From assembly GCA_950295325.1 (NCBI GenBank), contig OX485807.1:47896440-47960439 (forward strand): a stretch of DNA of 64,000 nucleotides, read 5' to 3'. Shown here piece after piece: positions 9,680 through 50,260 of the stretch (position 1 is its first letter; each line of letters starts with the position of its first letter). The notes beneath the pieces were generated by a model. That model searched no databases and had not been told where the DNA came from. It saw only the letters and a program-made list of their open reading frames with translations. The translations under genes were made by a program, and so were the position numbers. The DNA comes from Polytrichum commune. Taxonomy: Eukaryota > Streptophyta > Polytrichopsida > Polytrichales > Polytrichaceae.

Positions 9680-9959
9680 TAAAAAAGCTCAAAGTAGAGG
9701 GTGCTTAAACCAACCCTTTGGTTGATTAATCTTCTTTTGGAGTTCATTTGCATTTGTGATGTGCATGATTAGCTTAGGAAATTAACTTAGACATGATAGA
9801 ACAAAATAAAAACAAATTGCATATCATATGAATATACTATATAATTTTAAAGCCACTCACCCCTAGCTTTCTAAATCCTCCCTAGACTTCCATTCTTCCA
9901 TTGCAAATGGTTCCCAAATTCATCTTGACACTTTCCCAAAATTGCCCATGTCTTGCGTT

Positions 9960-11700
9960 TAAGACCGACCCCGCTTTCTCCATGAAGTTTGGTCTCTTTT
10001 GATGTGCAACAAATCCTTGGAGAAACCTTGTCAAGTAGGTCGACAATTTTTTGTAGAAATTCAAAGCGAGAGGGAAGTGTTGCATACAAGTATAATAAGG
10101 TAAACGTATGTTATTGCGATACTTTTCTCTCTGCACCCACTTCTCGTAGGATTTGAAAGCTTGGGGAGGTGACTATCGGAATTTTAGAAACCATGTGAGA
10201 TAAAAAAAATAGGGTCAACTTAATTTGTTGAGGGTAAATTTTATAAATTCGTTAGATCTACCATAGCATTGGAAATATGTCCCATACATGATTCTATGTA
10301 AAATAGGATGGTGATTAATTCCTTCATTTTACTAATCAGTAGAAATAAATAGAGTTATAGATATTGGATCCCCCCCCCCCAATGTGTGCAGTAGGATCAA
10401 TAGAATAATTATGGGTTTGACTACTTGGATGAAGAATTGTATAAATTCTATCCAAAATTGAATGGAACGTGTTAGTATGGAGGGAAATGTTGTGGATTTT
10501 TTTGGGGGAAGGAATGATGTGACTTCTCAAAGGCCCTTGAGCGTGCTTAGAGTTTGGGCAAGCACAGTGGCGTGAAGGCGGTGAAACATTTAGGTAGGAG
10601 GTTTTGCGTTGGTGAAACGTGAAGCGATGAAGCATGGCGCAAAGGTGGTAGGTAAGACACATTTTTGGAAGCTTTCTTCTTTGCTCCATAGCATTTACAC
10701 AAGGTGTTTCACGAGCACGAAAGATTCGGCTTGCTTCACTCTTGTGCGGTAAGAGTCAATTTCAAACTCCAACTCTTTGATTTCCCCCTTCCACTGCCCG
10801 TTTCCTAACAACATGCTACTTATTTCCGATGCCCTCCTCAAGCACTGGATTGGCAATCCAATGCATACACGAGAAGCCATGGCAAAGCGAACAGCACACG
10901 CCGTGTTAACAAGTCATATCACTGGCTGGTTTCTTTGTTGGATTTTGTTATGCATTGATTGAGATCTCAAGGGGTTCACTAGCGAAAATCGTAGAACAAC
11001 GTGCGATAAAAAATAGGGTCCAATATATTCATTGTAGATAAATTTTGTAAAAAATGTACATGTAAAATAGGAGATTTTAAAATAGTGAAACATGTTTACA
11101 TGTAAAATACCATCACATATAATATTTTCAGGTTTTTTACATGTAAAATACCATCACCTTATAATCTTTTATGCAAGGTAAATAACCCCCCCAATAAGTA
11201 GGTCTCGAACGCACGTGTATGCAAAATATAAGAGGGAGTGAACCCCCCGAGATTGAGATATTGGTAGTGAAAGAACCTGCACCTAGAATTTGGTTGGTTA
11301 CCACTTTCCACTTGCTTACTTGGTTTTGTCCAAGTCCTTCTGTCTTATTTTGTGCATTCTAAATGTTTCTCATATGAGGAGTGAAAATCTCTGTAGTTTT
11401 GAGGAGCTCCTAGAAGTTATGGTGTTTTTTTTTGCACTTGATTCTTTTATGTCTGGTTGTGTGTTTGAGGATTTCGAACGTGAATTTTGATGAATTGGGA
11501 AATGCATCGTCATTGCATGTTTGACGCTGCTGCCACTTGTCATGTAGGTGAATCCGAATCTCAATGTTGTGGCAATAACATGTCTTACGGTGTTCATCGG
11601 GTGTCATCGATCTGTCAAGTCTGCTCCTCCCACGGTGAGCTTCGGAAGTGATTTAGTCTAGTGGGTTTAAGTTGGTCCAAAGTTTGTTTTGCATTGATTG
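9960..11700. other. No gene seen; some degenerate repeats
   Basis: Short frames lack recognisable motifs. Two passages beginning 'GATAAAAAA(T)AGGGTC' (near 10200 and 11005) look like diverged copies of one sequence. The passage at 11180-11260 resembles 16510-16600 (shared 'AAAATRTAAGRGGG' then 'CCCCC', 'TTGAGAT'). A C10 tract lies at 10371-10380. Confidence 0.45.
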
Positions 11701-20255: not shown

Positions 20256-20917
20256 GTCAACTCGCCGACTGGGGGTAAGGTACAGACTGTTTGTGCAAAC
20301 CATGAGCCTTGCTCGCCCTTCGCAGATCATCACAAGCCTTTACTTCACGCAAGAATTCTCCGGGTCCAAACACTTGGTGGAGCCTCCCGTATGTAATTTC
20401 CTCCCACTCTTCTTAGTTATGGGCTGCAGATCGGTAGGTTGTAACCAGGTGTCGCTTTGCTTCAGCCTTTCTCGTGCTTCCCAGCACATGAAATTTCATG
20501 CACCGATTGAATCTGGTAGAGCACTTGAAAATGACCTCCATCCTTCGATCTGCTTATTTGTGTGCCCTTAATATTGATCTGTGCAGCGTACCATAGGGTT
20601 TTTGGGGAGATGCGGCTCAAATTCCTGTTCAAAAGCTCGCAAGCATAGTTCGTACCCTCACATCGGCTGACCGGATCATTGCTTACGGTGGGAGGTGGAG
20701 ACTCAGTTTTCCACCTGGTGATCATGATTACGATCCAATTCCAGCAGTTTTATGCGTGAGTGTCTCTTGTCAACCCAGCTTGGAAATGTTCGGATGAAGT
20801 AGGTCTTAGTTCGTTTTGATGTCAATCATCTGCCCTCTATGTAGCAAATGAAGGACAACCTATCCTGCCTGATGCTTCGTTGAGCATGAGGCACACAAAG
20901 TCATCAAGAACCTCAAG
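20256..20917 (+). other. Upstream region of the kinase gene
   Basis: GC content rises above the flanking MITE nest. No recognisable coding motif; a 92-codon frame at 20293-20571 is unsupported. It probably holds the kinase promoter and 5' untranslated region. The frame of the kinase start is open back only to a TGA at 20870-20872, with no other ATG between. Confidence 0.4.
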
Positions 20918-22757
20918 ATGCAAGCGCTCCGTTTTATTAGAGACTGGGTTGTGCCTGTGCCTGTGCCTGTGCCTGTGCTTGTGCCTGTCGATTTCCTAGG
21001 GCTCTCCCAAGACTGTGTGGAAGAGATAGAAGACCGCGTAAGAAACTCCAACGCGCTCCTGAATGAATCTCAGTGTGGAGATTTGTCATCAAAACTTGTG
21101 GAAACCATTGAGAATGTCAGAGCACTCATTTCAAACTGTGGGGAATCTTGCACCCCCTTTACACCGGCTTTACGCGACATATATAAGATTTCAGAGAGGG
21201 CGAAGCGGCTTGTTTTTAACTGTTCCAATAAGAACTTGCGTGAAGCATCACTAATATTTCAGCTACAAAATGGTGAGGCATTTCAGGAGATTTTGTTGGA
21301 GATGGGTTTATGTTACAATGTCATTTATGAGCAAGCCAAGGGAATGCGTGGAAAAGGTGATCCTCAGATACAGGATCTTCGCGAGTCTTCAACATTTTCA
21401 CCTGCAAGTAAAGAGAAGGTCCATAAAGATCGAGAATCTTTGCAAGAGGTACTTGTGCGCTTGGCCGGCACAAAATGCTCCTCAAACCCTTGGGAGAAAT
21501 GCCTCGCAGAATACTTGCTGAGAAGATTCCACTGCCGACCTCAAAATGGCCAGGCCAATGAGTTGGGCATCTCTACCAGTGCAATTTTGTGGGTGAAGGA
21601 AACAGAACCTGAAGAGACCTGGAAATTTGACCGCCGTATTGGAAGTGGGTCTGGCGCCACTGCTGTTTTGAAAGCACAATGGCTTGGCATTCCGTGCGCC
21701 AAGAAGGAATTTCACACGAAAGTGGAGAGGGCTATTTTCGAACAAGAAGCAATAATCTTATGTCGTCTCAGCCATCCAAACATTGTGAATTTTTTCTGTT
21801 GCAACAATGGCCCGGAGAAGGGACAATGTTTCATAGGGATGGAGCTAATGCACATGAGCCTTTCTGATTTGATCCGGGATCAAGCAAAAAAAGGGCGAAA
21901 ACTGTTCCCACTCTCTACAGCACTTGATATTATCTTGCAAATCGCCCGGGGAATGCGCTATCTGCACGACTTGGGGATTGCACATCGAGACCTCAAACCG
22001 TCAAATGTGGTTGTAAATAGATTGATCACACCACATCTCGACGACAATTTCTGTGTGAAATTAGTGGATTTTGGAATGTCAAAGACCAAAGTGGAGGTCT
22101 CCAAGTCAATTACAATATCTATAATTGGTGTCGGCACTACAAGATACAGAGCTCCAGAGGTACATCCTAAAGCACAAGACCTTGAACTAGGAGATGAAGG
22201 GCATGCAAAGGTACTTTGGTTCAAAGCCGATGTCTATAGCTTTGGGGTGACTTGTGCAGAGATTCTATTTTTGAAGACACCATTTGAGGATGTTGAATTA
22301 CCCGACATGTATAGAGAATTAGTGAGAGGTGCAAGGCCCGAACTTCCTTCCCATTGTCCTAGAAAGTTGGTGTCTCTTTTGACACAATGTTGGAACGAAG
22401 ACCCGCGTTCAAGGCCTAGATTTATAGACATTTGCACAAGGCTTGAAGCGGTCAGACATGACCTTTCGAGGGGCTCCACGTCTGTTGCGCATGGAGGTTT
22501 GCAAGAAGTCGGAGTTGATCCCATAGGCTACAAGTACATTGAGGAGATGTTGAGGAAGTGTCAACACCAACGGCAAAAGCACTTTGCCGGCCTTGACCAA
22601 AAGTAAGTCTGTCCTTCTGATTTATGCATGAACTGTGACATATGATCGACTTTTCACTTTTGTTTACAGGATTACTTGGTCGTTGGTCTTGCAGTCGGTT
22701 GGTGCGAGTAGCAAGCTTGCTGCTAAATTGGCAGGTTCAAGTCAGAGACTTTCATAA
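20918..22757 (+). CDS. TKL/Raf-like protein kinase with helical N-terminal region
   Basis: Two exons, 20918-22602 and 22670-22757, joined across a 67-bp intron (GTAAGT...TTTACAG); product 590 aa. Without splicing the frame would stop at 22606; splicing keeps the frame and adds 28 residues rich in Leu, Ala and Ser. Residues 1-30 carry a Val-Pro dipeptide run from a (GTGCCT)6 microsatellite. Residues ~35-150 look helical and resemble the DUF1221-type region before many plant kinases. The kinase domain spans ~235-520: glycine loop GSGSGA from 242, lysine in CAKKEF (K263), catalytic HRDLKPSN from 356, DFG at 384-386 and APE at 412-414. All catalytic residues are present, so an active Ser/Thr (or dual-specificity) cytosolic kinase is expected. 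No signal peptide or membrane segment is seen, so it is not a receptor kinase. The class assignment is inferred. Confidence 0.9.
20951..20986 (+). repeat. (GTGCCT)6 coding microsatellite
   Basis: Six hexamers, one with a C-to-T change, encode Val-Pro repeats near the kinase N-terminus. Length change in steps of six keeps the frame. Confidence 0.9.
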
Positions 22758-24337
22758 CTTTATCCTCAAAAAAATATTATGTGCTCAATGTGAGGACGAG
22801 ATGCATCAGCTTCAATCACTTCAATTGAAATTTGTCATTTCCACGTGCCTTCAAGTGAAGGACCCATTACTTGCACATTAAGGTGTTTTCAACTGGTTTA
22901 GTTACAAAAGTTGAACCACCAGTTTATGCATTGGTTTAGGGCTTGTTCATGTATTTGGTTATCTGGGAATAGATGTGATGTGGTATTTGAGGAGGCGAGA
23001 GAGGATGAAGGACTAGGATCAAGGCTTGAGGTAATTTGGGATTATGAACATGACCATCATAAAAGTGGTACTGTCATCTTCACAAGCGGGGCACAGTTCG
23101 GTAACCCACTAACGAGGTGTGGAGTCCTTAGCTCTTATTTCAACAGTCCCCTCATTGGAGCATTTCGATCTCTCTAAATGACTTGATTCCCTAGGTTTTA
23201 GGGTCTTACACTGCATTTTTGTTATTACTACATGAAATAGTTTTCTCAGTAGACAGAGGGACTCTACTATTTTACACAACGAATGGACATTAAAAAGGCC
23301 CAGCTAAATCAGAATAGTCTCTTGAAAATAAACTGCCTTTCTAGCATGTTCTGGAAATTAGCAACAAGTTCCGCATGGAAATGCATATTTATCTTTGTTG
23401 AGACGAAGGTTGAGTGTAGGTTAAGACCCAGTTTAGAGTTTGTGTGTTTCTGACTTGGAGTTGCCATGACTTGGTCATTTTATTCGCTCCTCTATTTTGT
23501 TTTAGTCCTATGAGAACCCTTGACTGTGACTCATGTGGACACCAAAGCTGGCTGCAATCTGAATTGAGAACATAATCTGATGCTGTGTCTAAAAATCTAC
23601 AGAAGTATGCTTCTGTAGTATTCTGGATGATGACTGTGATTGCATTTCTCTTTTCCAGGAGAAAATAAACGCGTTCGGTGAAAATAGCAATTTTGATGAA
23701 TAGGCTACATGTTATTCTGATATAGTCCCAATTGAAACTTCTATTACCTTGATGTAATATACCATGAAGGAATATTATGCAGGTCTGCCCTTGGGGTGGC
23801 AACTCTCATATTCTATGGCGAGGCTTATGAACATTTGTACAACATAAATTGAGAAATAGCTTATGAATGTCTCCAATTTTGTTTAGAATTCAAGAAAGTA
23901 ATTCATTGACTAAAAAAAATTAAATTTCTATTTGAAGATCATATAGGTTTAATATACAACTTAATACAAGTAAAATATGAGAGCTTATTCCACAGGGAGC
24001 AGAGAGGCAAGCCAAAAGGTATTAGACAATGTTTTTTAAATTATGATCTGTTATGATATGCTATGATATGCCAATATAAATATCCATATTAATAATTTGA
24101 AACAACGAAAAAACATATTTCATAAGTCATGGCTATAGTGAACCTCTTAAGAAGTTTGATTGAGAACGATTGGAGGAAAAACACAGATTCCATAACATTC
24201 TTAAGCATCCTTGACTATCCACCTTGGGGGTTCTACCATCCAATTTATGAAGTTGAATATAGAGACGTGGAGATTAACGTGAATCATAGCATTGCAGAGA
24301 ACGAAGGGATTTTCAAGAAGAAGGGATCTTGCCAAAT
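22758..24337. other. Intergenic; no gene seen
   Basis: It probably includes the kinase 3' untranslated region. A 137-codon minus-strand frame at 23389-23802 has no recognisable domain and no context. The stretch near 23930-24120 is very AT-rich. A 72-codon frame from 24129 could be an upstream exon of the next gene: its 3' part overlaps a possible acceptor (CATTGCAG) at 24290-24297. Confidence 0.4.
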
Positions 24338-27300
24338 ATGGAAGTAGCAGTAATACGACCTGAGATGCTCGTTGGTTCAGGTAAGTGATTGGAAGCATGA
24401 TGCAACCCAAAGCTTCCAAATTTAAGTGACTTTTCCATGCGAAAAAGGTTGATTCGTTGCTATAATCGGAATCTAAAATGAAGTTATGTTCGTTGCAGGA
24501 AGAGAAACTCCCCCCTCGGAAACACATCACGGAGAAGATGGACCAATGAGACAATATTTGCAAACTATACCATGCACCCGTAGCCCTCATGATGCATTAC
24601 TTGAAATCCCGTGCCTGTTGATTGAAGATCCCACAATGTGCCGGACCACTACAATTGCAGTACCTCCTCACAAGATGGTTGTCATACACTTCATTTCCCC
24701 TTTTGATGTTGATGTATTTTGTTTAGTACGGAAGAGAAGTGGACATCAATCTTTATCTCTTGAAGGTCCAAAATCTCGTTTGGTTAGTTGAACACTTAAA
24801 ACATTCAAATCGTATATCTCATTCTATAGAAAGATATGTCATTGTTATGTTGAATAAGAAAGTCACAAATTGACATCCAATCTTCATCAATAGTTCAAAT
24901 GTATGAACCTCAACAAAATTATCCACTCTGTCTTTTAGTCCCTAAATTAAGATATAAATTCTCAAACACAAAGGATTAAGTGTATGTAACATAGAATCAT
25001 TTTTTATTGTGTTATCATATATGTAACCAAGATTTTGTTTGGTTCTAGAGGCATGTGTGGGAATTAAAATTTCAAGCACAAGTAGAAAGTTGTACACTAG
25101 CCATCTTATATATGGTGTTTTTTAGGTGTTAATTTCTCAAATTCATGGATAGTGATTCATGCTTTGCACAAGTGTGAAAACAACTTGTAACGTATAAATG
25201 TTATGTTTAATAAGGTGTTTTTAGCAACTTTGATATTTGTTTTGAACAAGGAGATTTAGATCCAATTAAGACTTTCATCTTAGTTACTTGAGAAAATAAA
25301 ATCGTAATGCAAGTGAATAAATGATTGAGAGTTGTACACTAACTCCCCTCCAGGCTTAGATTACTTTTATCATTTCACTATATATGTTTATTAATTATAG
25401 TTTTGCTAAGTAACACCTTTAATTAGCTCAAGGCCTTAGCTGATTCAAGTACCATAAGCAAGTGGAGTTGATACTCTTGAGTAGCCTATAGACTATAATA
25501 GTGCTATGATACCTTTTCAAATATATTTGAAATTGTTGCAACAATTGGCCTTAACCATTTTGACATTTATATGTTTGATTCTCATCGACTGTTAACATTT
25601 TGAAATTAAGAATTCATGAATTTTGAAATTGAATGGTTTTTGACCAAGCGATTTGACCTAATTTCAACAGGGACGAACACTAGATTATGTCGACCAAGGA
25701 GATTCATTGGTGCTATGGCGTGCAAGACTCGCCTACATACTCAAGGATTGGGAGCATGCAACTTCCGAAAAGGTCTAGTTAAAAACATAATTCTTATTTA
25801 TGTGCCATTGATATTTTTAGAATATGGAAAGTGTTGAATGTTGTTCATGTGATAAAAATAATAAGTTGAAAATGAAATTGTGGTTTATTCTTTCAGGGCA
25901 CCTTAATTCTTGCATCCTCATGGCAACTACTTTGTGATGGAGTCCATGCAATTGATGAGTTTTGTCATCAAGATTGTAAGGTCGGTAAGGATGGCATGCT
26001 CATAGTGGAGGCTACATCAACAACCATTGTTATTTATGATGTTCTTGACCGTAAGGTAAGGGTCATACATAGCTTTGAGGATGAATAGGTTTCTCTCTTT
26101 ACATATTATTTTATTACATACAATTTTTGTAATGATTTTTTTCATAGTTGCTTTGTTCAAAAGATTGTGGCCCTTTTCATTTGCAATATAAACACCTTTG
26201 TGGTAGAACATGGTGATCATCTCCATTAATGTATGTCTTTGTTTGGATGTAAAGGTAAATCCCCAACACTCCAAGGTGTGGTCACCTCTGCCATATTCCG
26301 ATATGGATATCGAGCCTGATAATCAAGAGATGGATAAGGTATTTACATTTTATTTCCTTTTGCCCATGATGTGACTTTGAAAGGTCGGGGAATTTAACGT
26401 GGTGGCAAATACGACATCTACTACATTGGTGTTCTTATTTAGTGTGGGTTTGAGAATATTGATGTGCGTGGTATGTCACTACCAACAAATGATGACAAAC
26501 AATACAAACAACACAAGCTTATATAGACAATTAACAACTTAATTATATGTATAATCGTATACATAATAATATTATGTGTAATTCAACATGTATATTTTCT
26601 ATAGTTGGAAACTATATTTTGATATACTAAACTTGTTATTGCAATTAATAATGTTGATAATTGCCATTGGGTATGTACATGAATGTCATTTAAGTTGAAA
26701 TTTATGTTTTGATATAAGTTTACCCTTCGATATTCCAGTAGTTTTAAACTAATGCTATTAAATCTTATTAGGCATATCCAAAATAGGTGTTTAAACCCAA
26801 AATTAGATTTTGGCATGTGACAATGGATAAGAATGTGTTAGGGGATATGTAGTCCTTGTTCTCTAATTTTTTTGACATCACAATTTTGATTTTTTAAATC
26901 TCATAAAAATTCATACTAGAATCATATTATTGTATTCAAATCGATACCAAATCATGAAGTCCTTCAAATGTCTTCAAAATATAATGGATGGTACTTGCAC
27001 TATCTTGATAAAAATCCACTCATTGGAATTATTGGAAGGACAATATGTCACATTCTACATGTGGCATAAACTGCCCAATCAAGAGCTATGAAAAAAATGC
27101 TTGAACAACATGAAAATGAAGATTGGATAATAAACTACCTTTTTTGCCCCTCCTCTAAGCTTCTTTACATTTCAGCATACTTTCATTTATAGATATTAAA
27201 TATGACACATTATATGTATGCATTGTATCTAAAGTGCAGTGTTCCAGTAAACTAATTTGAGGTTTTAGTGCAGTCCCACTTACATGAAACCTTACACGTT

Positions 27301-30300
27301 ACACCATAGTGTAGTGTAATGGTGGGGTTGGTCAAAATCCAACCATACACCAATTTCTGTAGGTGGCTTACTTTCCATGAAGATCTAGATGAATATGTTA
27401 TGAATTTCTAATTCTTGATGGACAAACATACTTTAACAAAAATTCATACAAATGAAAACATAATTCATGGTGTCAAGAAATAAATAAACAAATAAAGATT
27501 AGACCATAAACTTCATGTAGTACTACATAGGAGGTGATCTTAAGATTCTTTGAAATCAATACATTGTTCATCAATAGTTCCATGGAGAATGACATTTGTA
27601 GGTTGCAAAATAATCCAATTCGTGCAATTCTGCTTTGATCAAACTTATGTATGTAGAAGTAGTTGTTGATTCTCCCACTTTTGGTTACTGACAAATATCA
27701 AAAGATAAAAGTCAAAGATAGTGTATGCATATTACATGAAACCAAAAATATAATATCAGTGTAAAGACATTGGTGCGCAAACAGTTGAAACTGATTTTTA
27801 CATTGATGCATGAAGTGTTGCAAGGTGTGGTTCAAGAGAGGTCTAAATTTGAAAATAAAATTTATACCATCTCTAATTCTTGATTTCGTTCATCTCATTC
27901 TTTCCATTGGACCATACATATGTGTACATGAATACAAATGACCCATATTCAAATACATAGTACATATATATGATAACCATTGTCAAATGTCACACTATTT
28001 CCACATTATTTCTAGATTAGTTCCATTGAAGATTTGTGTGGGATGCATTGAGCAAGTTTAACTAGGGCCACCTCGACCACGACATGGGTCAACATGTTAT
28101 CAACTTTGGAAGGGCTCATGGATGTGTTCATGGTCTTGCGAGATTAATATTTGCAATAATGCAACAAGTAACATTTGGACCAAAATCTAATCTAAAAATA
28201 TGATACGTTTACTTATACCATAGTATGTATTTAATATGTACAAGTAATTAAATATCATTATAAGATAAGGTCATTTTATATTTAACCTAGGGTACCAAAC
28301 TAAGGCCAGTGTAGATCTTCACATTCACACAATACGTGAAATGTTGTCAACATTTCTATAAAATATGAGGTCAAGTAAGTCCACATATGTGGTGGATCTT
28401 AATAGCATGTTGGTTTCCTCTAGAAACATGTGACAACTCTTGAAGTCCAATGGAATATTTAAATGAAATTGACATGCTTGAGCTATTGGGTTTGGGGATT
28501 TAGCCTCTTAGCTCGACAATATCTATCATTATTTGACATGAATCTTAAGCTAGTTATACACACATCTCCTATTATTATAATTGACTTTGAGAAACATACT
28601 TGAATATTTTTACAACTATAATTTAGAGTGAGAAAATGATTGTCAATTGATGATAAATGAAGTGGAGTATTATGGATTAGTAGAAGCACAATGTATCAAA
28701 GTGTTTCAAGTTTAGGTGGATGCATCATTTGTATTTGCAGGAAGAAATTGCCGGTGTTCTCCTACATCCAGATCTCAACATTATATTTTGGGCTACAACC
28801 CATGGTGTTATTGGGGCCTATGATTTCCAAAATGAGGTGCGAAATTACTATCAATGTCATACATGTAGAATATGAAATTCTACGTTGATAAATGATAACT
28901 TTATTGAAGAACTAAAAATGATATTGTTTACGAGAGATGTTTTTGTAGTCCCAAAGAATTTCAATATGGCACATGAGTTAGACCTACATGATTGTCTTAA
29001 CTTCCTATTGAATAATTTGTTGTTGACTTTTTGTAGCAAATAATATAACCCAAAATAGGTACACAGTGGGAACCAATTGCACGATTTCCTAAGAAAAGTT
29101 GATGTATGCATAATTAGAAGAAGATTACCCAAATCATCTCAAGCAAAGCCCGAGGTGTGTAATCTACCTTGCATAGGGGTGCTTGAGAGGGTTGCCAATT
29201 CAAACAAATGTGTACATAGAGCACATAGGGGAATTTGAAGTAAAGTTTGTATGTATAATTTGGGTCATTAATGTGATGTGTATAATATGTAAAAATACAA
29301 TAGGCCCATGATCCGGGCATGAAATGCAAAATTACAACAATAGCCATGAACATGTGCATATGTTATGGACTAGTCATATATTTGAAGCTATGTGTAAACT
29401 CTACATTTGAATTTGAAGGTGGAACATACTTTATTTTTAAGTTTAATGAAAAGTCCCCCCTCCCCCCAAACAAGTATTGTTCATATTGGGCTACTCTAGC
29501 ATTGATTGATTAATACATGGAAATTTATGTTGGATTGCAGATCTTGATTAGAAGAGTGCATCTCTCTCAATTAAGGGAAAATTCCAACGACTATAGCATA
29601 GGGGAATTGATTTTTTCCATCGGTCTAAATATGTTGGTGGTCTGTTGCGATGTCGAAGATGAGGTATTCTTTTGTTGTATATCAAAGTCAACCATGCACT
29701 TGAGTTTCCATTTATGTTCATGCTAAACTCCCCCTAGAAAGCTAGAATTATGTTATCATTCCACCCTTTGATTATGATGATGTGTATTGAATCATGCTGA
29801 AATACAATAAATAAAACCTTGTGTTCTCTTTCGTATGGTCTATGTCTTATGACTCCTATTCCAAATTGTTGGGTGGAAGCAATTTAACATTTAGTTATGT
29901 TCTAACATGTGTGTTTGTGGTGTCATTAGGTGGATATATATACATGGACACTCAATGATGAGCAAGTAGAGAGAATAAATGGATTTGATGACCATTGTCT
30001 CTGTGACCTCCACAATGACCAAGTTCAACTCCTTGTTGCGAATGAAGACAACTTAGCCATTTGCGATTTGCAGCAACGAAAGGAACTCCACAGGGTAAAT
30101 ATCAAATTCTTTTTTAAAATCTTGATTCCTCCATTTCACTTTGTTGGTAATCAGGTCTTATTGTGATCGTGATGCATGGTACACATGATAGTGTATTTTA
30201 TACCACCAATTCTATTCATCTCGCTCAATATTGATTGTAAACCACCCGTGCAGTGTCACCAACACTGAATATAAACGTAACAGTATTTGTCATTCCTTGC

Positions 30301-31267
30301 AAAACAAATTGTTCATCACAAATTTACAATGTTGCAATTACCGTCACTTACGAAGTGATGATTATCATCCAAATATCAATCATCCATGACAGTATTATTT
30401 CATTTCAGAACTTTTAGGATGCAAAACATACCAAACTTTGTTTCAATAGTTGGCAAACTTGGATGACCTAAAAGTAATTTGGGATGAAACTATTGAGTAA
30501 ACTTACTCACAAGAAGTGTCATGAGAACAATTACCAGAGTGACATAAAATACCATACAAAACTACGTCCAATATATGGTGTAGTATCTTGATGTGCTAGC
30601 TAGTATACTTATGTGTCCCTACGCAACCACAATGAAATTCCCATCTCCCGTTTGTTGATGTTTTGAATTCGTTCTACACAGTGGGACCCCAAGGACACAA
30701 GTGTCGAAGGATGGATACGTTGTGCTAAGTACTCATGGGACGGTGAGCTTGTGTATGCCGGCTTTGTCAATGGTTCGATTGGCGTATTTGATGCCACTGC
30801 TCGTTTACAACTACATTGTCGAATTACACCATCTGCATACAGCCCAAATCATCAGTGGCCCGGGTACATATACTAATACCCCAATCCATGCCGAAGTCAT
30901 ACCCAATTCTTCCCTTCTCTGCTAAGCTGCAATGGAACATGAATTGTTTGTGGCTTTGGAGCATAATATGTGTAGGTGTGGATGTTACTGTTTGCAGATG
31001 TCATCTTTAGTTGTAGCAGTTTGAGCTCTTCGTAAATGAAATGCCGTGCTTGGCAATAGACGGAGTTTGTGATGTTTTGACGGGAATTTTGATCCAACAT
31101 TTGTTGTTGATGGCAGCATCTGGCAGATTGTAGCGCATCCTCAAAAGCGCAACCAGTTTGCAATTCTTTTGTGGGGCAAAGAAGTTGTATATGTTATTGA
31201 GCCATCACACGAGTTGGGAGGAGAGTGGGTTTGTGAGGCCAATCAAAGGAGTTGGCGGACAAATTAA
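24338..31267 (+). CDS. TOPLESS-like protein consisting of the C-terminal WD40 propeller
   Basis: Ten exons with GT-AG junctions and consistent phase: 24338-24380, 24499-24782, 25671-25772, 25897-26055, 26255-26338, 28741-28836, 29541-29663, 29930-30094, 30682-30863, 31117-31267; predicted product 462 aa. It follows the C-terminal propeller of TOPLESS/TPR co-repressors in order: DPTMCRT (TPL EPSQCRT), a VLLHPDLNII repeat, DQVQLLVANEDNLAI, CAKYSWDGELVYAGF, LQLHCRITPSAY (TPL LRLRCRINPSAYL) and a final exon with AHPQKRNQFAI and VIEPSHELGGEW. The LisH, CTLH and first propeller of full-length TPL (~1,130 aa) are absent from the window upstream. TPL proteins repress transcription in the nucleus through EAR-motif partners bound by the N-terminus, so this form would lack that interface. 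The start is the least certain part; a longer 5' end or a decayed duplicate are alternatives. Intron 5 is 2.4 kb. Confidence 0.7.
26339..28740 (+). other. Long intron of the TOPLESS-like gene
   Basis: 2.4 kb of AT-rich sequence between exons 5 and 6. No element with clear ends was found in it; short frames have no motif. Confidence 0.5.
30170..30600 (-). mobile_element. Fragment of the 8220-type Harbinger element in intron 8
   Basis: On the minus strand this intronic stretch matches the interior of the element at 8640-9110: the sequence around TGTAAACCACCC and GTTGCAATTACCGTCACTTA mirrors the corresponding positions. It is diverged and its termini are not clear. Confidence 0.6.
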
Positions 31268-39639: not shown

Positions 39640-40142
39640 CAACTTGGCAGACAACCAACTTGCGCACATTAAAAGTTGCAAATGACCGGTAAAGACATGA
39701 AAGACTCTTTGCAACATTCACAAGACGAAGATTTTGTTTAATATCATTTTTATTCGCAGCAAATTTTTTAACATTTAAGATGCAAAACGACGATGATTTG
39801 TTACACCACGTCAACAAGGTCAAGGCGTTCGTGGATCAACTTGTTTGCTTGGATGTACCCGTGAGAAACGAAAATATTGTCATGACCTTGCTCGAAAGTT
39901 TACCGACATCGTTTGAATACTTGATTAGCTCCATGAAAACAACGTTGATGAAAAAACTTACAATGGACTACGTGACGGAGCGTTTGATGCATGAGATGTC
40001 GAAGTACAAGGAGAAGGAGCCCAAAGATAAGAATGCCATCATGGTGTTGCGACAAGAGAAAGAGGGCAACTCATTTCCGCGCCAAGGCGCAAAATCGTGT
40101 TACTATTGTGACAAACCATGCCACATTATATGTTTTTGTTAG
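39640..40142 (+). pseudogene. Copia gag, C-terminal part with zinc knuckle
   Basis: The frame resumes with LNLADNQLAHIK, then is disrupted by stops and a frameshift before 39780. From 39780 it reads as the UBN2-type copia Gag (DLLHHVNKVKAFVDQL, MTLLESLPTSFEYLI) and ends in a CX2CX4HX4C zinc knuckle (C, C, H and C within CYYCDKPCHIICFC), where a premature TAG follows. Gag packages the element RNA in cytoplasmic particles. Confidence 0.88.
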
Positions 40143-40229
40143 ATAGCAAAGAACAAAGAGCGAAAACAAACAAAGAATGCGAATGACGATGACGACTAAG
40201 CATTTGTAATGCGTAATGATGCACGTTTC

Positions 40230-41012
40230 AAGAGTATATGTAAGTAGATCATAGATTCGGGTGCTTCTAAGCACATGACTTCGTATAAGGCCGCATTTGA
40301 TAAGTATGAGGTAATCACTCCACGCAATGTGCATTTTGATGATAGTAGCGTTTTCCAAACTATCGGAATAGGATTCATTGTCGTGAAAACAATCTTGGAA
40401 GGTAAAATCAACCAAATTCATATACAAAATATTCCTCACATACCCAAATTACATGTCAATTTATTCTCAGTGAGCAAACTCGTGTTGAACAATTCAAAAG
40501 GTCCAATTCAACCTAAACAAATACATTGTCAATATAATGGCGAAGCCATTGCGATTGCGCCACGTGAACGCAACTTGTACGAAATCAATTTTTTGAAGGT
40601 GCACGAAGCGGAAATGGCCAACTTGGTATAATCTCCAACGGAAGATGACGCGCTCGAACTTTGCAACCGCCGCCTTGGCCATTTGAATGTGAAGGGTATT
40701 CATACCTTCCAAAACATAGTAAGTGATATGAACCTTGGCAAATATTCTTGCCCCACATCCTCCTTATTTTGTGAAGCGTGCATCAAACGTAAACAACATA
40801 GGGTTGTGTTTCCAAATGAAGGAGGGAAACAAGCAACCAAACCTTTGGAAATCGTGCATTCCGACATGTGTGGCACCATGAGGACTACATCTATACAGAG
40901 TGCAAGATATTTTATAACTTTCATAGATGTTTTTCAAGGAAGGTGTAGTTATTTGTATTGAAATCTAAAAGGGATTTTTTTAGAAGTTCAAGAAGTTCAA
41001 GGTACTCGTAAA
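40230..41012 (+). pseudogene. Copia protease and N-terminal integrase
   Basis: IIDSGASKHM at about 40248 is the aspartic protease active site (DSGA). It is followed by the GAG-pre-integrase region with the HHCC zinc-binding pattern (RRLGHLNVKG ... CEACIKRKQHR) and the start of the integrase core, EIVHSDMCGTMR, whose Asp is the first of the catalytic DDE residues. Premature stops occur near 40630 and 40960. The frame is cut at the insertion beginning 41018. Confidence 0.88.
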
Positions 41013-41017
41013 GACAT

Positions 41018-41995
41018 AATCGGATGTTGTGCACCTCTTCATGAGAAGTGCCCAAAACATCATGGGCACAAGGGGGACTCCGGAGTGACACCCAGGACTT
41101 GTGGCGCCGTTGATGAGAGGGCCTAAATGATCCTAGTGTGGGTGAGGGCCCTGGGCGTAGGGAACACCTCCCACCCATGGAGATTCGAAGTCATGAGGGT
41201 AAGGCCATAAGTTATGCGTAGCTTATGGCGTGTTGATTGTAGAATGCTCAAGAACACCTCAATCGGAGGTGTGAGCTAGGAGATATGGCAATTTGAATGG
41301 GACGTTGTCCTAGGACAGCGCCCTGGTACAACAACGGCTTGGGAGTGGCTCCTGGGGCTGCCAAGGTTGAACATACAAAAATTCCTCATTGTTTGCCCAA
41401 ATGGGGCATGTGAGGGATCCATTGGCATCAACGTGAAGCTTAGATGACGGTGGAGTGGTGTTGTTAGCATCAGACATCATACAACGAAGTTATGGTCTTC
41501 TGAATTTGCTGGGGGCTTCTAGGCCCAACAGCTAAAAAAAATGTCTACTTGGCCCCAACTCTTAGTAGAGAGACAAAGGGTTTCTTGACAATGGGGTAAA
41601 GGCCCTGCTAAAAGTCCTAAAGGCTTATATGGGTGAGGTGGTATGGCCGAACCCACCCGAGGCCGAACGGCATGGCTTCCATGGGTATTGGCCCAATGAA
41701 AGGGCATACTAGTTGTCTAGTATGCTTTGGGTTGTTATAGTGTTAGTCCTGCAACACAATGATCAACATAAGATTGGACTTTCATGGATGAAAGTTCACA
41801 TCTAAAAATTGGTTACCGATTGAGGGGTGAGTCCCGAAAGCAAATTGGGAGGGTTGGTTCCCCTCCCGGAAACTATAAGGTCCACGTTATGGGGAGCTAA
41901 TAATTAATATGGCGGAATGCGAACGGTTAGTGCTCGTGACCCTTGCTATAATTGAAAAATAACCAAGATAATTAAGGGAAGCTAGCGAGGGTTGC
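41018..41995. mobile_element. 978-bp insertion in copia integrase
   Basis: GACAT occurs on both sides (41013-41017 and 41996-42000), and integrase homology stops and resumes at these points. The insert has higher GC content than its host and no long frame. On its minus strand near 41190 is ACTTCGAATCTCC, close to a polymerase III B box, so a SINE-like part is possible. The ends lack TG/CA and have no inverted repeat, so the class is not assigned. Confidence 0.7.
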
Positions 41996-42000
41996 GACAT

Positions 42001-42423
42001 GAGATCACAACATCAAAATGTTTCCAGTCGGACAATGACAGGAAGTTCATTTGCAAGACATTTAACTATCTTTTGAAGGAGTATAATATCGAGAAGCAAC
42101 CATTTACCACATATATGCCGCAACAAAATGGTGTGGCAGAATGTGTGAATCATACCATCGTGGAGATGACAAGGAGCATACTTCATGCTCAAAACTTCAA
42201 CAAATTGTTTTAGACAGACTTGGTGGTTATTTTGGTTTACACACGAAACCGTTGTCCAACAAGGGCTTTGGATTTCATTACACCCGAGGAAACGTGGAGC
42301 GAAAGAAGGTCTTGCATTGCACACATACGTGTGTTTGGGTGCGTCGCCTACGCAATGGTGCCGGATGAACGAAGGGGTAAGCTCGATGCAAAGGGCACAA
42401 AATGTTTGTTTTTGGGTAATTGA
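42001..42423 (+). pseudogene. Copia integrase, C-terminal half
   Basis: The frame resumes in the integrase core: SDNDRKF carries the second catalytic Asp, and PQQNGVAECVNHTIVEM holds the third acidic residue within the usual PQQNGVAER-type motif. After a stop near 42212 another frame continues with ITPEETW, HIRVFGCVAY and KGTKCLFLG, the conserved region after the core. Several substitutions in conserved positions show decay. Confidence 0.88.
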
Positions 42424-42799
42424 GAGGGGACTAAGGCCTATAGGCTAAATTGTTTATAAATTAAAAATATCATAAAAAAATAAAAACGTGGTATTCATGG
42501 AAGATGGCATGAGCGTTGGAAACGTTTGGAGATTCGTCGAAGCAGGAGAAATAAAGGCCCTAAGGCAGTTGTTATGAACAAACCTTTCAAATCATCTTCT
42601 TGTGATGATGGTGAGGAGCGCAAGAAGCAAGTGGGAAATCACTTGGTCGCAAATGAGGAGGTAATCGGAATTCTCGTGGAGAATGACTACCGTGCTTAGA
42701 GATTCGGCAATGATGGAAGATATCCTAAGACGGAGCGACGTCCACCTGGAGAGTGGTGGAAGAATCACATTCTACTTCAACATAGCGAAGAACATTGTT

Positions 42800-43340
42800 G
42801 GATGATCATTTGAATTTATGCGAAGCGTTGAGATCCGAAGATGCGAGCAAATGGGATGCCGCAATGCAAGAAGAGTACGACTCACTCATAACAAACAATA
42901 CGTGGGAATTAACCAAGGTTCCAAAGGATCGCAAGAGTGTAGGATGCAAATGAGTGTTCCCACCAAAAAAAATGTATTGAATGAAGTTGTTAGGTATAAG
43001 GCACAGTTAGTGGCAAAATGATATTCTCAAATAGCCGGAGTGGATTTTAATGAGATATTTGCTCCCGTGGCCAAGTTTATGACCATTAGATACATATTCG
43101 CATTAGGAGCGGCGTTGAATTTGGAGATCCACCAAAGGGATATAAAAATGGCGTTTTGGAATGGAATATTGAAGGTGGAGATTTATATGGATCAACCAGA
43201 GGGTTTCGCACAAGAAGAGAAAGAACATCTTGTGTGCAAACTCAAAAAAAATTGTACTGGCTCAAGCAATCGTTGAGGGCATGATACTACCATATCGACT
43301 CATTCTTCATTAACGAGGGTTTTTGTAAGAGCCAAGCGGA
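42800..43340 (+). pseudogene. Copia reverse transcriptase, N-terminal part
   Basis: Frames in two registers encode the start of RVT_2: a KWDAAMQEEYDSL segment, then FNEIFAPVAKFMTIR (usually NEVFAPVAKF), DIKMAFWNG and EIYMDQPEGF. The DIKMAF motif contains the first catalytic Asp. Frame changes and a stop near 43020 break it. It is interrupted at 43341 by a TIR element. Confidence 0.88.
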
Positions 43341-43901
43341 CACGGGTAGGTCACTCTAAGGCATTTTTGTGCACCACGTGCGGCTGGGGGTTTTTTGTTT
43401 TGGGGCTATTTACCTTCAAGGGCTGAATTAAAGCCTCCTTATAATTACTTAAATTTCAAAAATGGCCCATTTGTTTGCACCCTTCCATTACTTACATTGT
43501 CCAAGTCACTGCAATTTTTTGTACTCTATATTCTTTTTAAGTAATAAAAGCTAATCTACTTCCTAACGCATTGACGAGTGTTAAGGGAAACCATGGAAAC
43601 AAAGAAGGGTGCAAACAGTAATATCATTGCAAACAAAGTTATGAAGAAAACACATAGGAGACCATAGCAAACATACTAAACATACCTTCTAGGATCCTTA
43701 TCTTCAGCCCCTATATTAATTTTACCAAAAAATAATGGCCCACATTTTATGTCCATCTAACTTACTTATAATGGGATTGTCTACATTTAATGGCCCCTTC
43801 ATTATTTGGAATTCCTTTATAATTTTTATTTCAAATGATTTTAATTCTCTCTATATTATGCCGCACGTCGTTTTTAAAATGCACTAAGTGACCTACCCGT
43901 G
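43341..43901. mobile_element. 561-bp TIR element in copia RT, 8-bp target duplication
   Basis: Ends are CACGGGTAGGTCACT and its exact complement, with weaker inverted similarity to about 43 bp. CAAGCGGA flanks both sides (43333-43340, 43902-43909). An 8-bp duplication is typical of hAT elements; if the next mismatched base is counted it could be 9 bp, as in MULEs. No transposase is present, so it is non-autonomous. Confidence 0.85.
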
Positions 43902-43909
43902 CAAGCGGA

Positions 43910-44133
43910 TCATTTGTTGTACGTCAAAAAAACAGGTAAATATTTGTTGGTGGAAATTCTGTACGTGGATGATTTGGCCATATTGGCAAACAATGTAACC
44001 CAATTGAAATAGCTCAAATCGGAGCTCAAGAAGGAATTTGAGATGAGCAACCTCGGAGAATTGCATTATTGCCTAGGAGTGGAATTTGAGAGGAATAGAG
44101 AAGCTTGTATCATTACCATGAACCAAAAGAGCT
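43910..44133 (+). pseudogene. Copia reverse transcriptase, catalytic centre
   Basis: Reading resumes after the TIR element with LLVEILYVDDLAIL, containing the YVDD box with two catalytic Asp residues, and continues to ELHYCLGVEF. A stop lies near 44012. It is cut after MNQKS by the SINE. Confidence 0.88.
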
Positions 44134-44507
44134 AGATAGATAGATGATAGAAACTCCGGTCCCTTTTTAGCAAGGGGCCGGCGTGAATAAAGTGTCCGTT
44201 CGTAATGTCAATGACCCGATGCCCACCGGACAAGGGGACATTGGGGCAATACTACTCTCCCCTTTCGAGGATGGGCACTATAGTGACACACTATACTAGT
44301 TCCTAGCTAGCCACTAGTGCCTTGAAGATACCGGACATGGTATCCCCCCAAAGGGCTTTGAGGTACCCATACAACAAGGTCCAAGGACCCCCCACCCTAG
44401 TTGGGTGGACTAAGGTGGTGAGCACCACGCCGGCATGGGGAATAGAACCCACAACCTCCTCATTGGGGGCCATGAGCCCTAACCACCAAGCCAAGGCCCG
44501 TGGTGCC
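44134..44507 (-). mobile_element. tRNA-derived SINE, full length, with 11-bp target duplication
   Basis: On the minus strand the head at 44507-44420 contains TGGCTTGGTGGTTAGGG (A box) and GGTTCTATTCC (B box, GGTTCGANTCC consensus) with tRNA-like spacing. The 3' end at 44134 has TCTA tetranucleotide repeats as its tail. CCAAAAGAGCT flanks both sides (44123-44133, 44508-44518), and the copia frame runs up to and on from these points. The tRNA head, short-repeat tail and long target duplication define a SINE mobilised by LINE machinery. Confidence 0.88.
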
Positions 44508-44518
44508 CCAAAAGAGCT

Positions 44519-44920
44519 ACATTGAAGAGATCCTCAAGCGTTTTAACATAGAAAAATGCAAACCGATTGGAACTCCGTTCGATGTGAATTCTAAATTGTT
44601 TAAACTTTCAAATGAGGAATTTATGAATGTGCAAATGGAAATGAAAGGTGTTCCATACAAGGCCAGAGTAGGATCTCTCATGTATACAATGGTGGCTACG
44701 AGGGCCGATATTGCATTTGCGGTAAGTACGGTGAGCCAATTCATGTCAAAGGCCAGTCCACCGCATTGGATGGTTGTAAAACGCATCATGAGGTATTTGA
44801 AGGGCACTTTGGACTTCAAATTATGCCTCAGAGGCAAGGATATCATCTTAAGAGGTTTTTGTGATGCGGATTGGATGGGAGATGCAAACAACCGGTGATC
44901 CACGACGGGGTACTGTAGAT
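44519..44920 (+). pseudogene. Copia reverse transcriptase end and start of RNase H
   Basis: Continues with YIEEILKRFNIEKC, then PIGTPFD, YKARVGSLMY, TRADIAFAVSTVSQF and VKRIMRYLKGTLD, all standard for the copia RT end, and reaches the RNase H motif FCDADWMGD. A TGA at 44896-44898 interrupts DANNR and homology is lost by about 44920, so RNase H and the 3' LTR are missing. Confidence 0.88.
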
Positions 44921-45717: not shown

Positions 45718-48700
45718 TTAGGCCCAAAGACATTTAAATGGTTTAACCTCTAATGTTATTTGAGTTTAAAACATATATACGGTTTGGGGTTCATGGTGTC
45801 CATCCATCATAGATGAAGGCATTCTAGTAACAACAAGTCCGCTACATGTTGAGGTCCATTTCATTCTGATTGGAATCACACTAAACTAATTCAGAATCTT
45901 TGGGTCTATTTATAGAATCGAGTCGTGGAATAAAATCATTTTCGGGCTATAAAATAGTTGACTGCTTTTAAACGGATGGGTTTATAAAGACCCTATCGAA
46001 AGTATGTCGGCGCATTTAAGGGTTAAGCCTCTGATTGCAGACAGATTGGTGATTGACAAGTTGCACCTGGAGCCACTTGTGGCCCTTGGATTCTATTTCT
46101 CATTGTACCTACACCCTCTACGACAGCAAGCTGACTGATTCCACTCCATCTATTTCAATGGACGCGGAAAACCGATTGCTAGTTACAGATGTTCCGTTTG
46201 AGTTTGAGTTTGAGAAATAACCAGCTGAAGTTCAAGGCTTCGGAAAAAATTACCAGTCGATTTGTAAAGGAATCTATTGAATATACCTCACGATGATAAA
46301 GAATAACTGAAAGACTCTCACGATGTATATGTAACCAGTTGTAATTGGAGTTTTGACCGATTGTGCCCAAAATCTTCCCTACGAACAATCTTATCTGCTC
46401 ATGAGGAGCCTCCAGTGTAGTGTCTGGGGAGATTTTTGGGCATAATCGGTCGAGATCCGAGTGTTTCCAGGTCCAGCTGGTTACATGTTGACATCTTTTG
46501 GTTTTTCTTTACTAAACCGGGTATATTCTATAGATTCCTTTCAAAACGACTGGTAGAATTTTCCTGAAGTCTAGAACTTCAACCGATTTTCCCTCAAACT
46601 CAACCGGTTTGTCTGTAACTAGCAGCCGGTTCTCCGCGTTCATCGCTCCGATCAGCAAACACGACGAATTTGAGAAACGTTGGCGTTTTAATCATGCAGA
46701 GCAGTGATCAGGGAGATTTTTGGGCATAACCAGTTTGATTCTGCGATTTAAGGCCCCAGTAAAGTAAAAATTTGACTCTGTGTTTGATAGTTTGACTGAA
46801 ATGGTAACTGCCTTTCAAATAAATAAATCGCAGTGCCGAGTAACATGATCTATCTGATCTAAATCCATGGGAGCTGTCTATAAATTCTCTTTCCTAGCTG
46901 GCTTTTCCTAGTGTTTGCAAGTCCAACCGGTTGCATGTTGACATCCTCCGGTTCTCTTTTACTAAATTGGGGTATATTCTATAAATTCCTCTAAAATGAT
47001 CGGTAATTTTCCTGCAGTCTTGAACTTCAACCAGTTATTTCTCAAACTCAACCGGTTCATCTGTAACTAACTGCCGGTTCTCCCCAATCATAGATGCAGA
47101 GGTGAATCATTCAGAGTTTTGTAAGTCAGTAGCACAAAGTCTCGTCCACTATAATTAAGGAAGCCTGTAAGTATTCTCTCTATGTTATAACCTGGTTTCC
47201 ATGCAATGCTGCACCTGACCTCTCATGTACTGAAGAGACCACATGTAATCATCTTGTGCAAAAGACACGTGATGTCCAAGTCATGTTCAGAGAGTAGAAG
47301 CACCTATTGCAGACATTTTGAACAACTATGGTCTCTTACCTAATACGGACACACTCTCCAATAATTTAGTTGGACCAACAATATCCACTTTGATCGCAAC
47401 GACTCTGAGATATGTGAATCAGAGCATATCTAAGTTTTGAAGAAATGTTCAAGTTTACAAACCTCGTTTGATCTTTCTTGGTCACATAGGTCTCCCAAGA
47501 AATGGGTGATGTGTCATGGCCTACTGGATATGACGTTAGGCTCATCAAAAAGAGGTGAATATAAAGGAAATCTAGGGATCACGACAATGAATCAAATTGT
47601 CAATGGGATCCTAGAAATATTATATTGCCATGATGGGGATCCAAACCTGAACATGTGTTGCAGTCCCTGAATATGGTCCACTTTTCATTTACACTAAGCT
47701 TGAGGGCCCATCGATTGCAAAATTGGATTTCTATTTCTCACGGTATGGTCCTTGGGAGAATTTCAAGGACCCTTAGATTTTATGATCACAACCCTTGGTA
47801 TGTGTGTAAAACATCCCTAAGAAAAAAACCAGAGAGAGGGAACTATTGTATACAAGTGTACCTCTCATTCATCCAACATACCGCCCTGAAATAGAATGCA
47901 ACATGGAGGTTACTAAGTATAGTTGATTCAATACCATAATTTAATTTAAAGATCCCAGATTGATCTACCTGAAGTCATTTGCACAAACCTATAGGGGTAT
48001 AAGTTTTCATGTTGGATGGATGAGAGGCATGCTCGTATACGGTAATTCCCTCTCTCCAAGGTTGCCCAATATAGGCCCACAAATGTGTCATTTGGTTTCT
48101 AATTCTATCCTTCCAATAGACTTTTCAGGAGAGAGGGAATAATTGTATATGAGCATGCCTCTCATCCATCCAACATAAAGTAAATCAACCCCCCTATAAG
48201 TTTGTTGCCATTCGTCTCGAATGACTTCACAAAGACTAATTCAGGGTCTTTGAAGTTGATTTTGGTGTCAAATCAACTAGAAAAGTAATGTCCATGTTGA
48301 ATATTGTTTCAAGGTTGTTAAGTTGAATGAATGTGAGGCATGCTTGCATACGATAAGGTATGTGGGTGTTATTTGGTTCATTTTTCATGTTCTCCAACTT
48401 CTACGGATTAAATTTACACAACAAAACCTTGTGTGGCTTCAACAATTTTACAATGAAACATATGCAAAAACTACTTTGATTTAGTTATGATTATCATAAG
48501 CGCATGTTTGTTGATGTTTGTTGATGTTTTTTTTTTTTTTTTTTTTTTGATACATAGGTCATCCCAATTGTGTTCCTATTGAGCGTAGAGTAATGATTGA
48601 TATTGAAGATGTAGTCCAATCTCTTCTGAACATCTTTACAATGTTTGCTCTTTGATCCTCACCCGAACCATCCACCAATCAAATATAGGGGTCCGATTAA

Positions 48701-49219
48701 GAAGACGAGCCACTTTATAAAACCCATCTACTTAATTGGTTCCCTCTCTTTGGCAACCTTGCCTAGTCTTTAAAAAACAACATGCTGAAAATTAACACTA
48801 AGGTGTGTAGGGTGTCGTTTGGTACATTTTTCATGTTCTCCAATTTCTCTCGATTAGATTTACAAAACAAAACTCGTGTTGCATTAGAAAGTCTACAATG
48901 AAACATCTGCAAAAACTGAATTGGAAATCATACCTCACTTGATTTAATCATGATTATCATGTGTATAAGTTTGCTCATTTTTAAGAGGATACATAAGTCC
49001 TCCCTATTGTGTTCAGTGTTGAGCGTAGAGTAGGTATTAAAATATGAAGACGTAGTCCAACCTCTTTTAAACACATGTCTTAATGATGTTTGCTCTTCGA
49101 CCCTCACCGAATCACATACTAATCAATACATGGGTCCGATGAAGAAAATGAGCCACTTAAGACCCCTCTACCTTAGGTTGCATATATAGATGAAAGCGAA
49201 GTGTTTAGTATGCTTATTA

Positions 49220-49882: not shown

Positions 49883-50260
49883 TTACTTCCATAGGAGGTC
49901 CTTAGCCATGAGTCCACTACAGTAGCCCGTCATGTGTATTATTATTATTACTATTATTATTATAGTACTAATTTATGATATAACTATTTATAATCGACGA
50001 ATTCCTTGACGATGATGATGTCAGATGGTACCCTTATGACGTCCGTAATGCTTTACTCCATGATGTCACCTATCGTAGTAAGGACTTCAGCATTAGACCC
50101 GGTCCCCAATTGGCCATAAATAGTTTTGACAAGTGTCACGCTCCTTCGTTTTCACCCTTTCAACTTGCGGAAAGTGCAGTGACTTGGCAAGCTAGACCTT
50201 CATTTTACAAGCTCTGGGTTGGGAAGGGTAAGGGTAAGGTACAGTTCAGATAAATCGTAA

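What the first reader, a model, noticed from the sequence alone, without database searches (positions are those of the whole stretch)
24338..31267. Propeller-only TOPLESS-like gene
Ten exons with consistent splice phase encode a 462-aa protein matching only the second WD40 propeller of TOPLESS/TPR co-repressors. The LisH-CTLH part that binds EAR-motif repressors is absent from the window. If expressed, it could compete with full-length TOPLESS for propeller partners or have a new role; otherwise it is a partial duplicate that has kept its frame across ten exons, which would itself be notable.
Basis: partly seen in the sequence, partly recalled or inferred. Interest (0 to 1): 0.75.

Follow-up and report, generated by a model that had tools for sequence, protein, structure and literature searches.

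The report
Fast-diversifying TOPLESS-propeller gene family
A plant has copied only the last ring-shaped domain of its general gene-repressor TOPLESS into a many-copy gene family whose predicted binding face changes faster than the surrounding non-coding DNA, which is what one expects of proteins caught in an arms race.

Summary
Ten exons at 24338-31267 join in frame to a 462-residue protein (453 from a better conserved ATG at 24365). It derives from the second propeller of TOPLESS: it aligns to the genome's full-length TPL far above chance, and 7 of its 9 introns match TPL introns in phase and place or nearly so. LisH-CTLH is absent.

It is not a lone gene. Exon 2 matches nine other places, eight in a block at C5:50.1-50.5 Mb and one on C2; some copies are broken, and tail-only pieces occur.

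Among block copies C, E, F, I every exon diverges more than its flanking introns, although all 21 exon indels counted are multiples of three. The excess is amino-acid changing and concentrated in top-face loops of the propeller. Site models favour positive selection; gene conversion between copies is a confounder. For the window copy itself dN/dS is about 1.

This speaks against a decaying fragment and makes simple competition with TOPLESS less likely. I favour a recognition or decoy family built from the TOPLESS domain that at least one fungal effector binds. The neighbouring kinase belongs to the family that precedes NB-ARC exons in this genome. Expression, ligands and function are untested.

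The parts
24499..24782 (+). exon 2: linker before propeller 2, with a variable stretch (residues 68-76) and an insertion relative to TPL
25671..25772 (+). exon 3: blade 1
25897..26055 (+). exon 4: end of blade 1 and blade 2
26255..26338 (+). exon 5: connection of blades 2 and 3; the intron after it (2402 bases) has no TPL counterpart
28741..28836 (+). exon 6: blade 3
29541..29663 (+). exon 7: D-A loop and first half of blade 4; most divergent exon among C, E, F, I (0.201)
29930..30094 (+). exon 8: end of blade 4 and blade 5
30682..30863 (+). exon 9: blade 6 (next intron phase 2)
31117..31267 (+). exon 10: blade 7 and stop; this exon with up to about 1 kb downstream also occurs as tail-only pieces in the C5 block
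24292..24297 (+). conserved TTGCAG (TTACAG in copy F) before an open frame leading into exon 1: possible acceptor, phase 2
   Evidence: inference
20873..22606 (+). neighbouring protein kinase exon (577-codon open frame; HRD and DFG read by eye), also upstream of copies A and B and about 7 kb upstream of copy H; same family as kinases that precede NB-ARC exons

Best explanation
SHOWN: the gene arose by DNA-level duplication of the last exons of TOPLESS, introns included, into a family of single-propeller genes without LisH-CTLH. Among block copies, selection keeps the frame and the bottom-face loops, and amino-acid changes pile up in the loops assigned to the top face (B-C and D-A). Exons also show signs of exchange between copies by gene conversion. 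INFERRED: a propeller scaffold with a variable binding face serves recognition. The likeliest role is in defence, as decoy or sensor for foreign proteins that target TPL's second propeller, with loop changes tracking changing ligands. Signalling through the neighbouring kinase, of the family that precedes NB-ARC exons in this genome, is possible but not shown.
For: Family: exon 2 matches 10 places counting the window, nine on C5 and one on C2; 8 copies were aligned along the gene and share splice sites, except that I differs 5' of exon 3 and exon 3 of A and B was misaligned there. Exons against introns: in C, E, F, I all 10 exons exceed their flanking introns (0.082-0.201 against 0.035-0.098; exons 1-2 on C, E, F only), and intron divergence is flat with distance from exons (0.059-0.073). 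In the six C/E/F/I pairs dN is 0.126-0.201 against intron K 0.070-0.080, ratios 1.76-2.89. Codon positions 1, 2, 3 diverge 0.175, 0.157, 0.100; 4-fold sites 0.083, close to introns, though uneven (0.027 top loops, 0.119 strands). Exon indels are multiples of three in 21 of 21, intron indels in 22 of 181 (window 25671-31230, six non-independent pairs). Top loops dN 0.370, dS 0.145, against bottom loops 0.086, 0.126; B-C loops differ at 0.660 of residue pairs, C-D at 0.167; 0 of 20,000 shuffles reach the top-bottom contrast. M2a against M1a, own code: 2dlnL 111.9 (C, E, F, I) and 229.8 (eight copies), omega2 7.98 and 6.39; sites over 0.95 for C, E, F, I: B-C 10 of 24, D-A 8 of 57, strand a 4 of 38, strand b 3 of 36, blade 1 3 of 58, A-B 1 of 24, strand c 1 of 40, C-D 0 of 25, strand d 0 of 36, before blade 1 0 of 109. 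[quoted passage not shown] WD repeats of fungal NLRs are hypervariable with diversifying selection on the interaction surface (PMC4986451, passages). Kinase kinship: 34 of 56 kinase matches entered have an NB-ARC match within 1.5 kb downstream on the same strand. Not entered were 40 of the 96 matches, all on C2:0.41-0.74 Mb, and 86 of the 126 NB-ARC matches.
Against: No expression, binding or phenotype data. For the window copy against C, E, F, I dN/dS is 0.93 overall and 1.05 in top loops; against A and B 0.79 and 1.29. Exonic dS (0.122) exceeds intron K, and nearest neighbours change from exon to exon (F exon 6 is 0.010 from A), so conversion between diverged copies explains part of the exon excess and violates the single-tree site models. 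C-D, the closest pair, has dN/dS 0.58. Loop classes were drawn by hand after I had seen the alignment; in the shift control shift 0 ranks 4 of 284, with +1 to +3 slightly higher. D-A loops also vary between this genome's TPL and Arabidopsis TPL (0.67), though B-C loops do so less (0.25). A and B share a stop in exon 2 (A has a second), F has one near its end; G, H, J are broken. C, E, F, I have no such kinase in the 8-10 kb upstream read; of D and G only about 2 kb was read.
Confidence: 0.55

Rival explanations
1. Dominant-interfering TOPLESS fragment: the propeller competes with full-length TPL for propeller-2 partners (DLNxxP proteins) and so tunes repression.
For: Derived from propeller 2 and without LisH-CTLH. 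[quoted passage not shown] A second TPL copy without a detected N-terminus stands in tandem to TPL on C1.
Against: Top-face loops, where partners often bind WD40 rings (recalled), are the most variable; W shares 36% with TPL; many diverging copies are not needed for dosage competition (inference).
Confidence: 0.15
2. Self or mating recognition, or conflict with selfish elements, rather than pathogen defence, drives the diversity.
For: The same molecular pattern is expected; fungal WD40 receptors with hypervariable repeats act in non-self recognition (PMC4986451, passages).
Against: Nothing seen in the locus points specifically to reproduction or to one element; the kinase kinship points to receptor-type immunity.
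Confidence: 0.15
3. Decaying duplicates: exon divergence reflects relaxed constraint plus gene conversion between old copies, with no present function.
For: A, B, F carry stops and G, H, J losses or frameshifts; exon mosaics and dS above intron K; overall dN/dS of W near 1.
Against: Relaxation alone cannot make exons diverge faster than introns; exon indels keep frame 21 of 21; a neutral simulation with 140 changes gives 5.2 stops on average and none in 0.75% of 400 runs, while W, C, D and E have none before their ends; bottom loops are constrained relative to top loops.
Confidence: 0.12

Closest known systems
TOPLESS/TPR co-repressors (second WD40 propeller)
   Same: Sequence above chance, blade order, 7 of 9 introns in phase and approximate place
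   Different: No LisH, CTLH or first propeller; top-face loops hypervariable; multi-copy; about 36% identity
Hypervariable WD40 domains of fungal NLRs (HET-D/E/R family)
   Same: A WD40 ring whose interaction surface is under diversifying selection, with exchange between paralogues (PMC4986451, passages)
   Different: There highly similar repeats in NLR proteins; here seven diverged blades of TPL origin in split exons, no NLR domain found in the gene
PK-NBS-LRR (PNL) genes of mosses
   Same: The adjacent kinase belongs to a kinase family whose members precede NB-ARC exons here; PNL genes are described from Physcomitrella (PMC3352924, abstract and passages)
   Different: No forward open frame of 100 aa or more between the window kinase and the propeller gene's exon 2, so no NB-ARC exon of the usual kind; the published PK-NBS intron is phase 0, the possible kinase donor here phase 2
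Tandem TPL copy on C1:34434902-34448121
   Same: TPL-derived; no LisH-CTLH found in the 5.5 kb before it
   Different: Keeps both propellers, propeller 1 at 72-95% identity to TPL per matched exon; not part of the C5 family

Membership tests
TOPLESS/TPR co-repressor | LisH-CTLH-CRA N-terminus | tested here: not met
   good TPL N-terminal matches only at C1:34419266-34421791; two weak 26% matches at C5:28.6 Mb, none in the window or the C5 block
TOPLESS/TPR co-repressor | first WD40 propeller | tested here: not met
   18 strong exon matches on C1:34.42-34.44 Mb; the other six are weak (E 1.2e-6 or worse) and none lies in the window or the C5 block
TOPLESS/TPR co-repressor | second WD40 propeller with TPL intron pattern | tested here: met
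   score 281.5 against a shuffle maximum of 84.5; 7 of 9 introns matching in phase and approximate place
Hypervariable WD40 recognition domain | diversifying selection concentrated on one face of the ring | tested here: met
   for copies C, E, F, I; weaker for W itself; faces assigned by hand, no structure made
Hypervariable WD40 recognition domain | fused or paired effector or signalling domain | tested here: inconclusive
   kinase upstream of W, A, B and near H; a phase-compatible join is possible but not shown; no kinase found near C, E, F, I
PNL receptor | kinase followed by NB-ARC and LRR | tested here: not met
   no forward open frame of 100 aa or more between 22606 and 24477; no NB-ARC match listed in the window, the nearest listed upstream at C5:47820187 (126 of 466 candidates scored)

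The most novel reading that the evidence does not exclude
A plant lineage has turned the second propeller of TOPLESS, a domain that effectors target, into a variable recognition head: a clustered family diversified by selection on the top face and by exon-wise gene conversion, with tail-only pieces as possible donors. In the window copy (and A, B, H) it may be spliced in frame to a kinase of the PNL type, giving a kinase-propeller receptor in which a TOPLESS ring takes the place of NB-ARC-LRR.
Probability: 0.2. Interest if true: 0.9.

Novelty: new variant of a known kind. Interest (0 to 1): 0.75.

Why it matters
TOPLESS is a hub that effectors of plant pathogens bind (PMC12886408, passages). 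A family of its propeller alone, diversifying on the binding face, would be a record of that conflict in what is probably a moss, and each loop position names a residue to test. My searches of the held library listed no description of such a family, nor of a hypervariable WD40 ring in a plant; that solution is known from fungal NLRs.

Tried and rejected
Pfam and PDB by sequence alone did not name the family: weak generic WD40 matches only. TPL propeller 2 matched 505 PDB sequences, designed WD40 rings first; no plant TPL propeller was among the 60 rows shown.

Considered and not adopted: retrocopy (introns kept); a lone duplicate; hitchhiking or conversion alone as the cause of the exon excess (intron divergence flat with distance from exons). 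Conversion does contribute: C and D differ at 20 exon-2 positions within 24589-24682, where C equals E at 19, and F exon 6 is almost that of A.

I suspected an upstream exon shared by all copies. Copies C, E, F, I instead have a separate intronless Myb/SANT-like gene with its own stop, about 3 kb upstream (about 1 kb in I). A second open stretch at about 8 kb of the joined E sequence diverges like its surroundings and was not tested further. A three-exon kinase-propeller join is not conserved (acceptor lost in H, donor lost in A); a two-exon join is compatible in phase but unproven.

Structure prediction was not run: the spliced protein is not read from the DNA letter for letter as that tool asks, so I did not send it. 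No other plant genome was at hand, so orthologues were not tested. That the host is a moss is inferred from the kinase/NB-ARC pairs and from seven contigs on which matches reach beyond 36 Mb; the species was not identified.

Full report
WHAT IS THERE. They have GT-AG borders and give a 462-residue open frame once exon 9 is taken to 30863. The protein aligns to the C-terminal propeller of the genome's own TOPLESS gene, which I rebuilt at C1:34419266-34429129 as 25 exons: 125 identical of 347 aligned residues, score 281.5, against a mean of 55 and a maximum of 84.5 in 300 shuffles. Seven of the nine introns correspond to TPL introns 18-24 with equal phase and the same or nearly the same place; introns 1 and 5 are extra. 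So this is a DNA-level copy of the 3' part of a TPL gene, not a retrocopy. LisH-CTLH and the first propeller are absent here: the N-terminus matches well only in the C1 gene, and propeller 1 strongly only on C1. The start codon is uncertain: ATG 24338 occurs in 4 of 9 copies (W, E, F, G), ATG 24365 in 8 of 9 (all but F).

A FAMILY. Searches with three parts of the protein gave 34, 31 and 30 exon matches in the genome, of which 28, 25 and 23 lie in one block, C5:50.11-50.59 Mb; the rest are the window itself, one copy on C2:30.04 Mb and, in the first search, TPL and its tandem copy. Exon 2 matches 10 places counting the window. I fetched ten relatives: A-F and I, and the broken G, H, J. W, C, D and E have no stop before their ends (462, 460, 460, 468 residues); F has a stop near its end (455); I is open from exon 3 on with a different 5' part; A and B share a stop in exon 2 (A has a second), followed by an open frame to the end. 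Further pieces carry only exon 10, or exons 9-10, with up to about 1 kb downstream; one (L018) joins window-equivalent 24167 to 30936, a deletion derivative.

EXONS OUTRUN INTRONS. In the whole-gene alignment exon identity is below intron identity in 27 of 28 pairs; the exception is A-B, where misaligned exon 3 inflates the exon count. Among C, E, F, I all ten exons exceed their neighbouring introns (exons 1-2 on C, E, F only), and intron divergence does not rise towards exons. NG86 gives dN/dS 1.24-1.47 and dN/K 1.76-2.89 in the six C/E/F/I pairs; W pairs give dN/dS 0.73-1.06 and dN/K 1.00-1.47; C-D, the closest pair, has dN/dS 0.58. Codon positions 1 and 2 vary more than 3, and 4-fold sites (0.083) are close to introns overall, though uneven between parts. 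Exon indels keep frame 21 of 21; intron indels are multiples of three 22 of 181 times, over six non-independent pairs. This combination points to diversification of a translated protein, not decay.

WHERE THE CHANGES LIE. I divided blades 2-7 by WD40 topology (recalled) into strands and loops, after having seen the alignment. In C, E, F, I the mean residue difference is 0.660 in B-C, 0.436 in D-A, 0.160 in A-B and 0.167 in C-D loops; top loops dN/dS 2.55, bottom 0.68. Sliding the classes round 284 residues, shift 0 ranks 4th and only +1 to +3 do better. As controls, Arabidopsis TPL against this genome's TPL differs 0.25 in B-C and 0.67 in D-A loops, and the tandem TPL copy against TPL 0.10 and 0.50, so D-A variability is partly ordinary and B-C variability is not. 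Site models give 2dlnL 111.9 and 229.8 for a positive class; sites over 0.95 are absent from C-D loops and strand d and most frequent in B-C loops (10 of 24), but some lie in strands a and b and in blade 1. For W against C, E, F, I the top loops have dN 0.386 and dS 0.366: fast, but not above synonymous. Nearest neighbours change from exon to exon (F exon 6 with A at 0.010, I exon 5 with A at 0.028), so copies appear to exchange exons; single-tree tests are therefore approximate.

SURROUNDINGS. Upstream of W lies a kinase (20873-22606), also upstream of A and B and about 7 kb before H. Among seven kinase copies dN/dS is 0.52-0.83, and 0.96 for the closest pair. Its wider family includes kinases followed by NB-ARC exons (34 of 56 entered), the PNL layout described in Physcomitrella (PMC3352924, abstract and passages). 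Upstream of C, E, F, I stands a Myb/SANT-like gene whose DNA-binding domain is itself a hot spot (dN 0.125, dS 0.080, against dN 0.025-0.027 elsewhere in the protein). On C1, a second TPL copy in tandem keeps both propellers, but no LisH-CTLH was found in the 5.5 kb before it.

MECHANISM. I propose that the propeller is a recognition surface or decoy. [quoted passage not shown] the precedent for design is the hypervariable WD40 ring of fungal NLRs (PMC4986451, passages). That the family acts in defence is inference. Kinase pairing, and still more a kinase-propeller fusion, is a lead only: the stop of the kinase frame (AAG TAA) overlaps a GT at 22603 that would be a phase-2 donor, and the AG ending at 24297 would be a phase-2 acceptor, but the ATG at 24365 may equally start a separate gene.

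PRINT. Searches of the held library for TOPLESS with moss, WD40 and tandem, for hypervariable WD40 rings under positive selection, for truncated TOPLESS without LisH and for TOPLESS as integrated decoy listed nothing whose title or abstract start describes such a family. For these I saw listings only, except PMC4986451 (passages). Most subscription papers are not held.

Noticed in passing
G000 C1:34434902-34448121 (L034, L046): Tandem TPL copy downstream of TPL keeps both propellers; no LisH-CTLH found in the 5.5 kb between.
   Followed up: partly
L047/L031, L048/L032, L049/L030, L050/L033 (upstream of copies E, F, C, I): Intronless 243-257 aa Myb/SANT-like gene whose DNA-binding domain is a divergence hot spot: dN 0.125, dS 0.080, against dN about 0.03 elsewhere.
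   Followed up: partly
window 20873-22606: Kinase of the family found before NB-ARC exons in this genome, here without one; its stop overlaps a possible donor that is phase-compatible with a conserved AG before exon 1 of the propeller gene.
   Followed up: partly
L003, L004, L006, L010, L013, L014, L018, L019: Tail-only pieces with exon 10 (L013, L014 also exon 9) and downstream sequence; could serve as donors for gene conversion.
   Followed up: partly
G000 C5:28623538-28624110 and 28610665-28611234: Weak 26% matches to the TPL N-terminus in open frames of 313 and 274 aa; identity unknown.
   Followed up: no
window 627-1046: Tandem repeat of 81 bases, seen as self matches.
   Followed up: no
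window 4625-9962 and 45768-51631: Long direct duplication in pieces of about 87-96% identity; between the copies, at 39693-44898, open frames that look like a copia-type element (name by recall).
   Followed up: no
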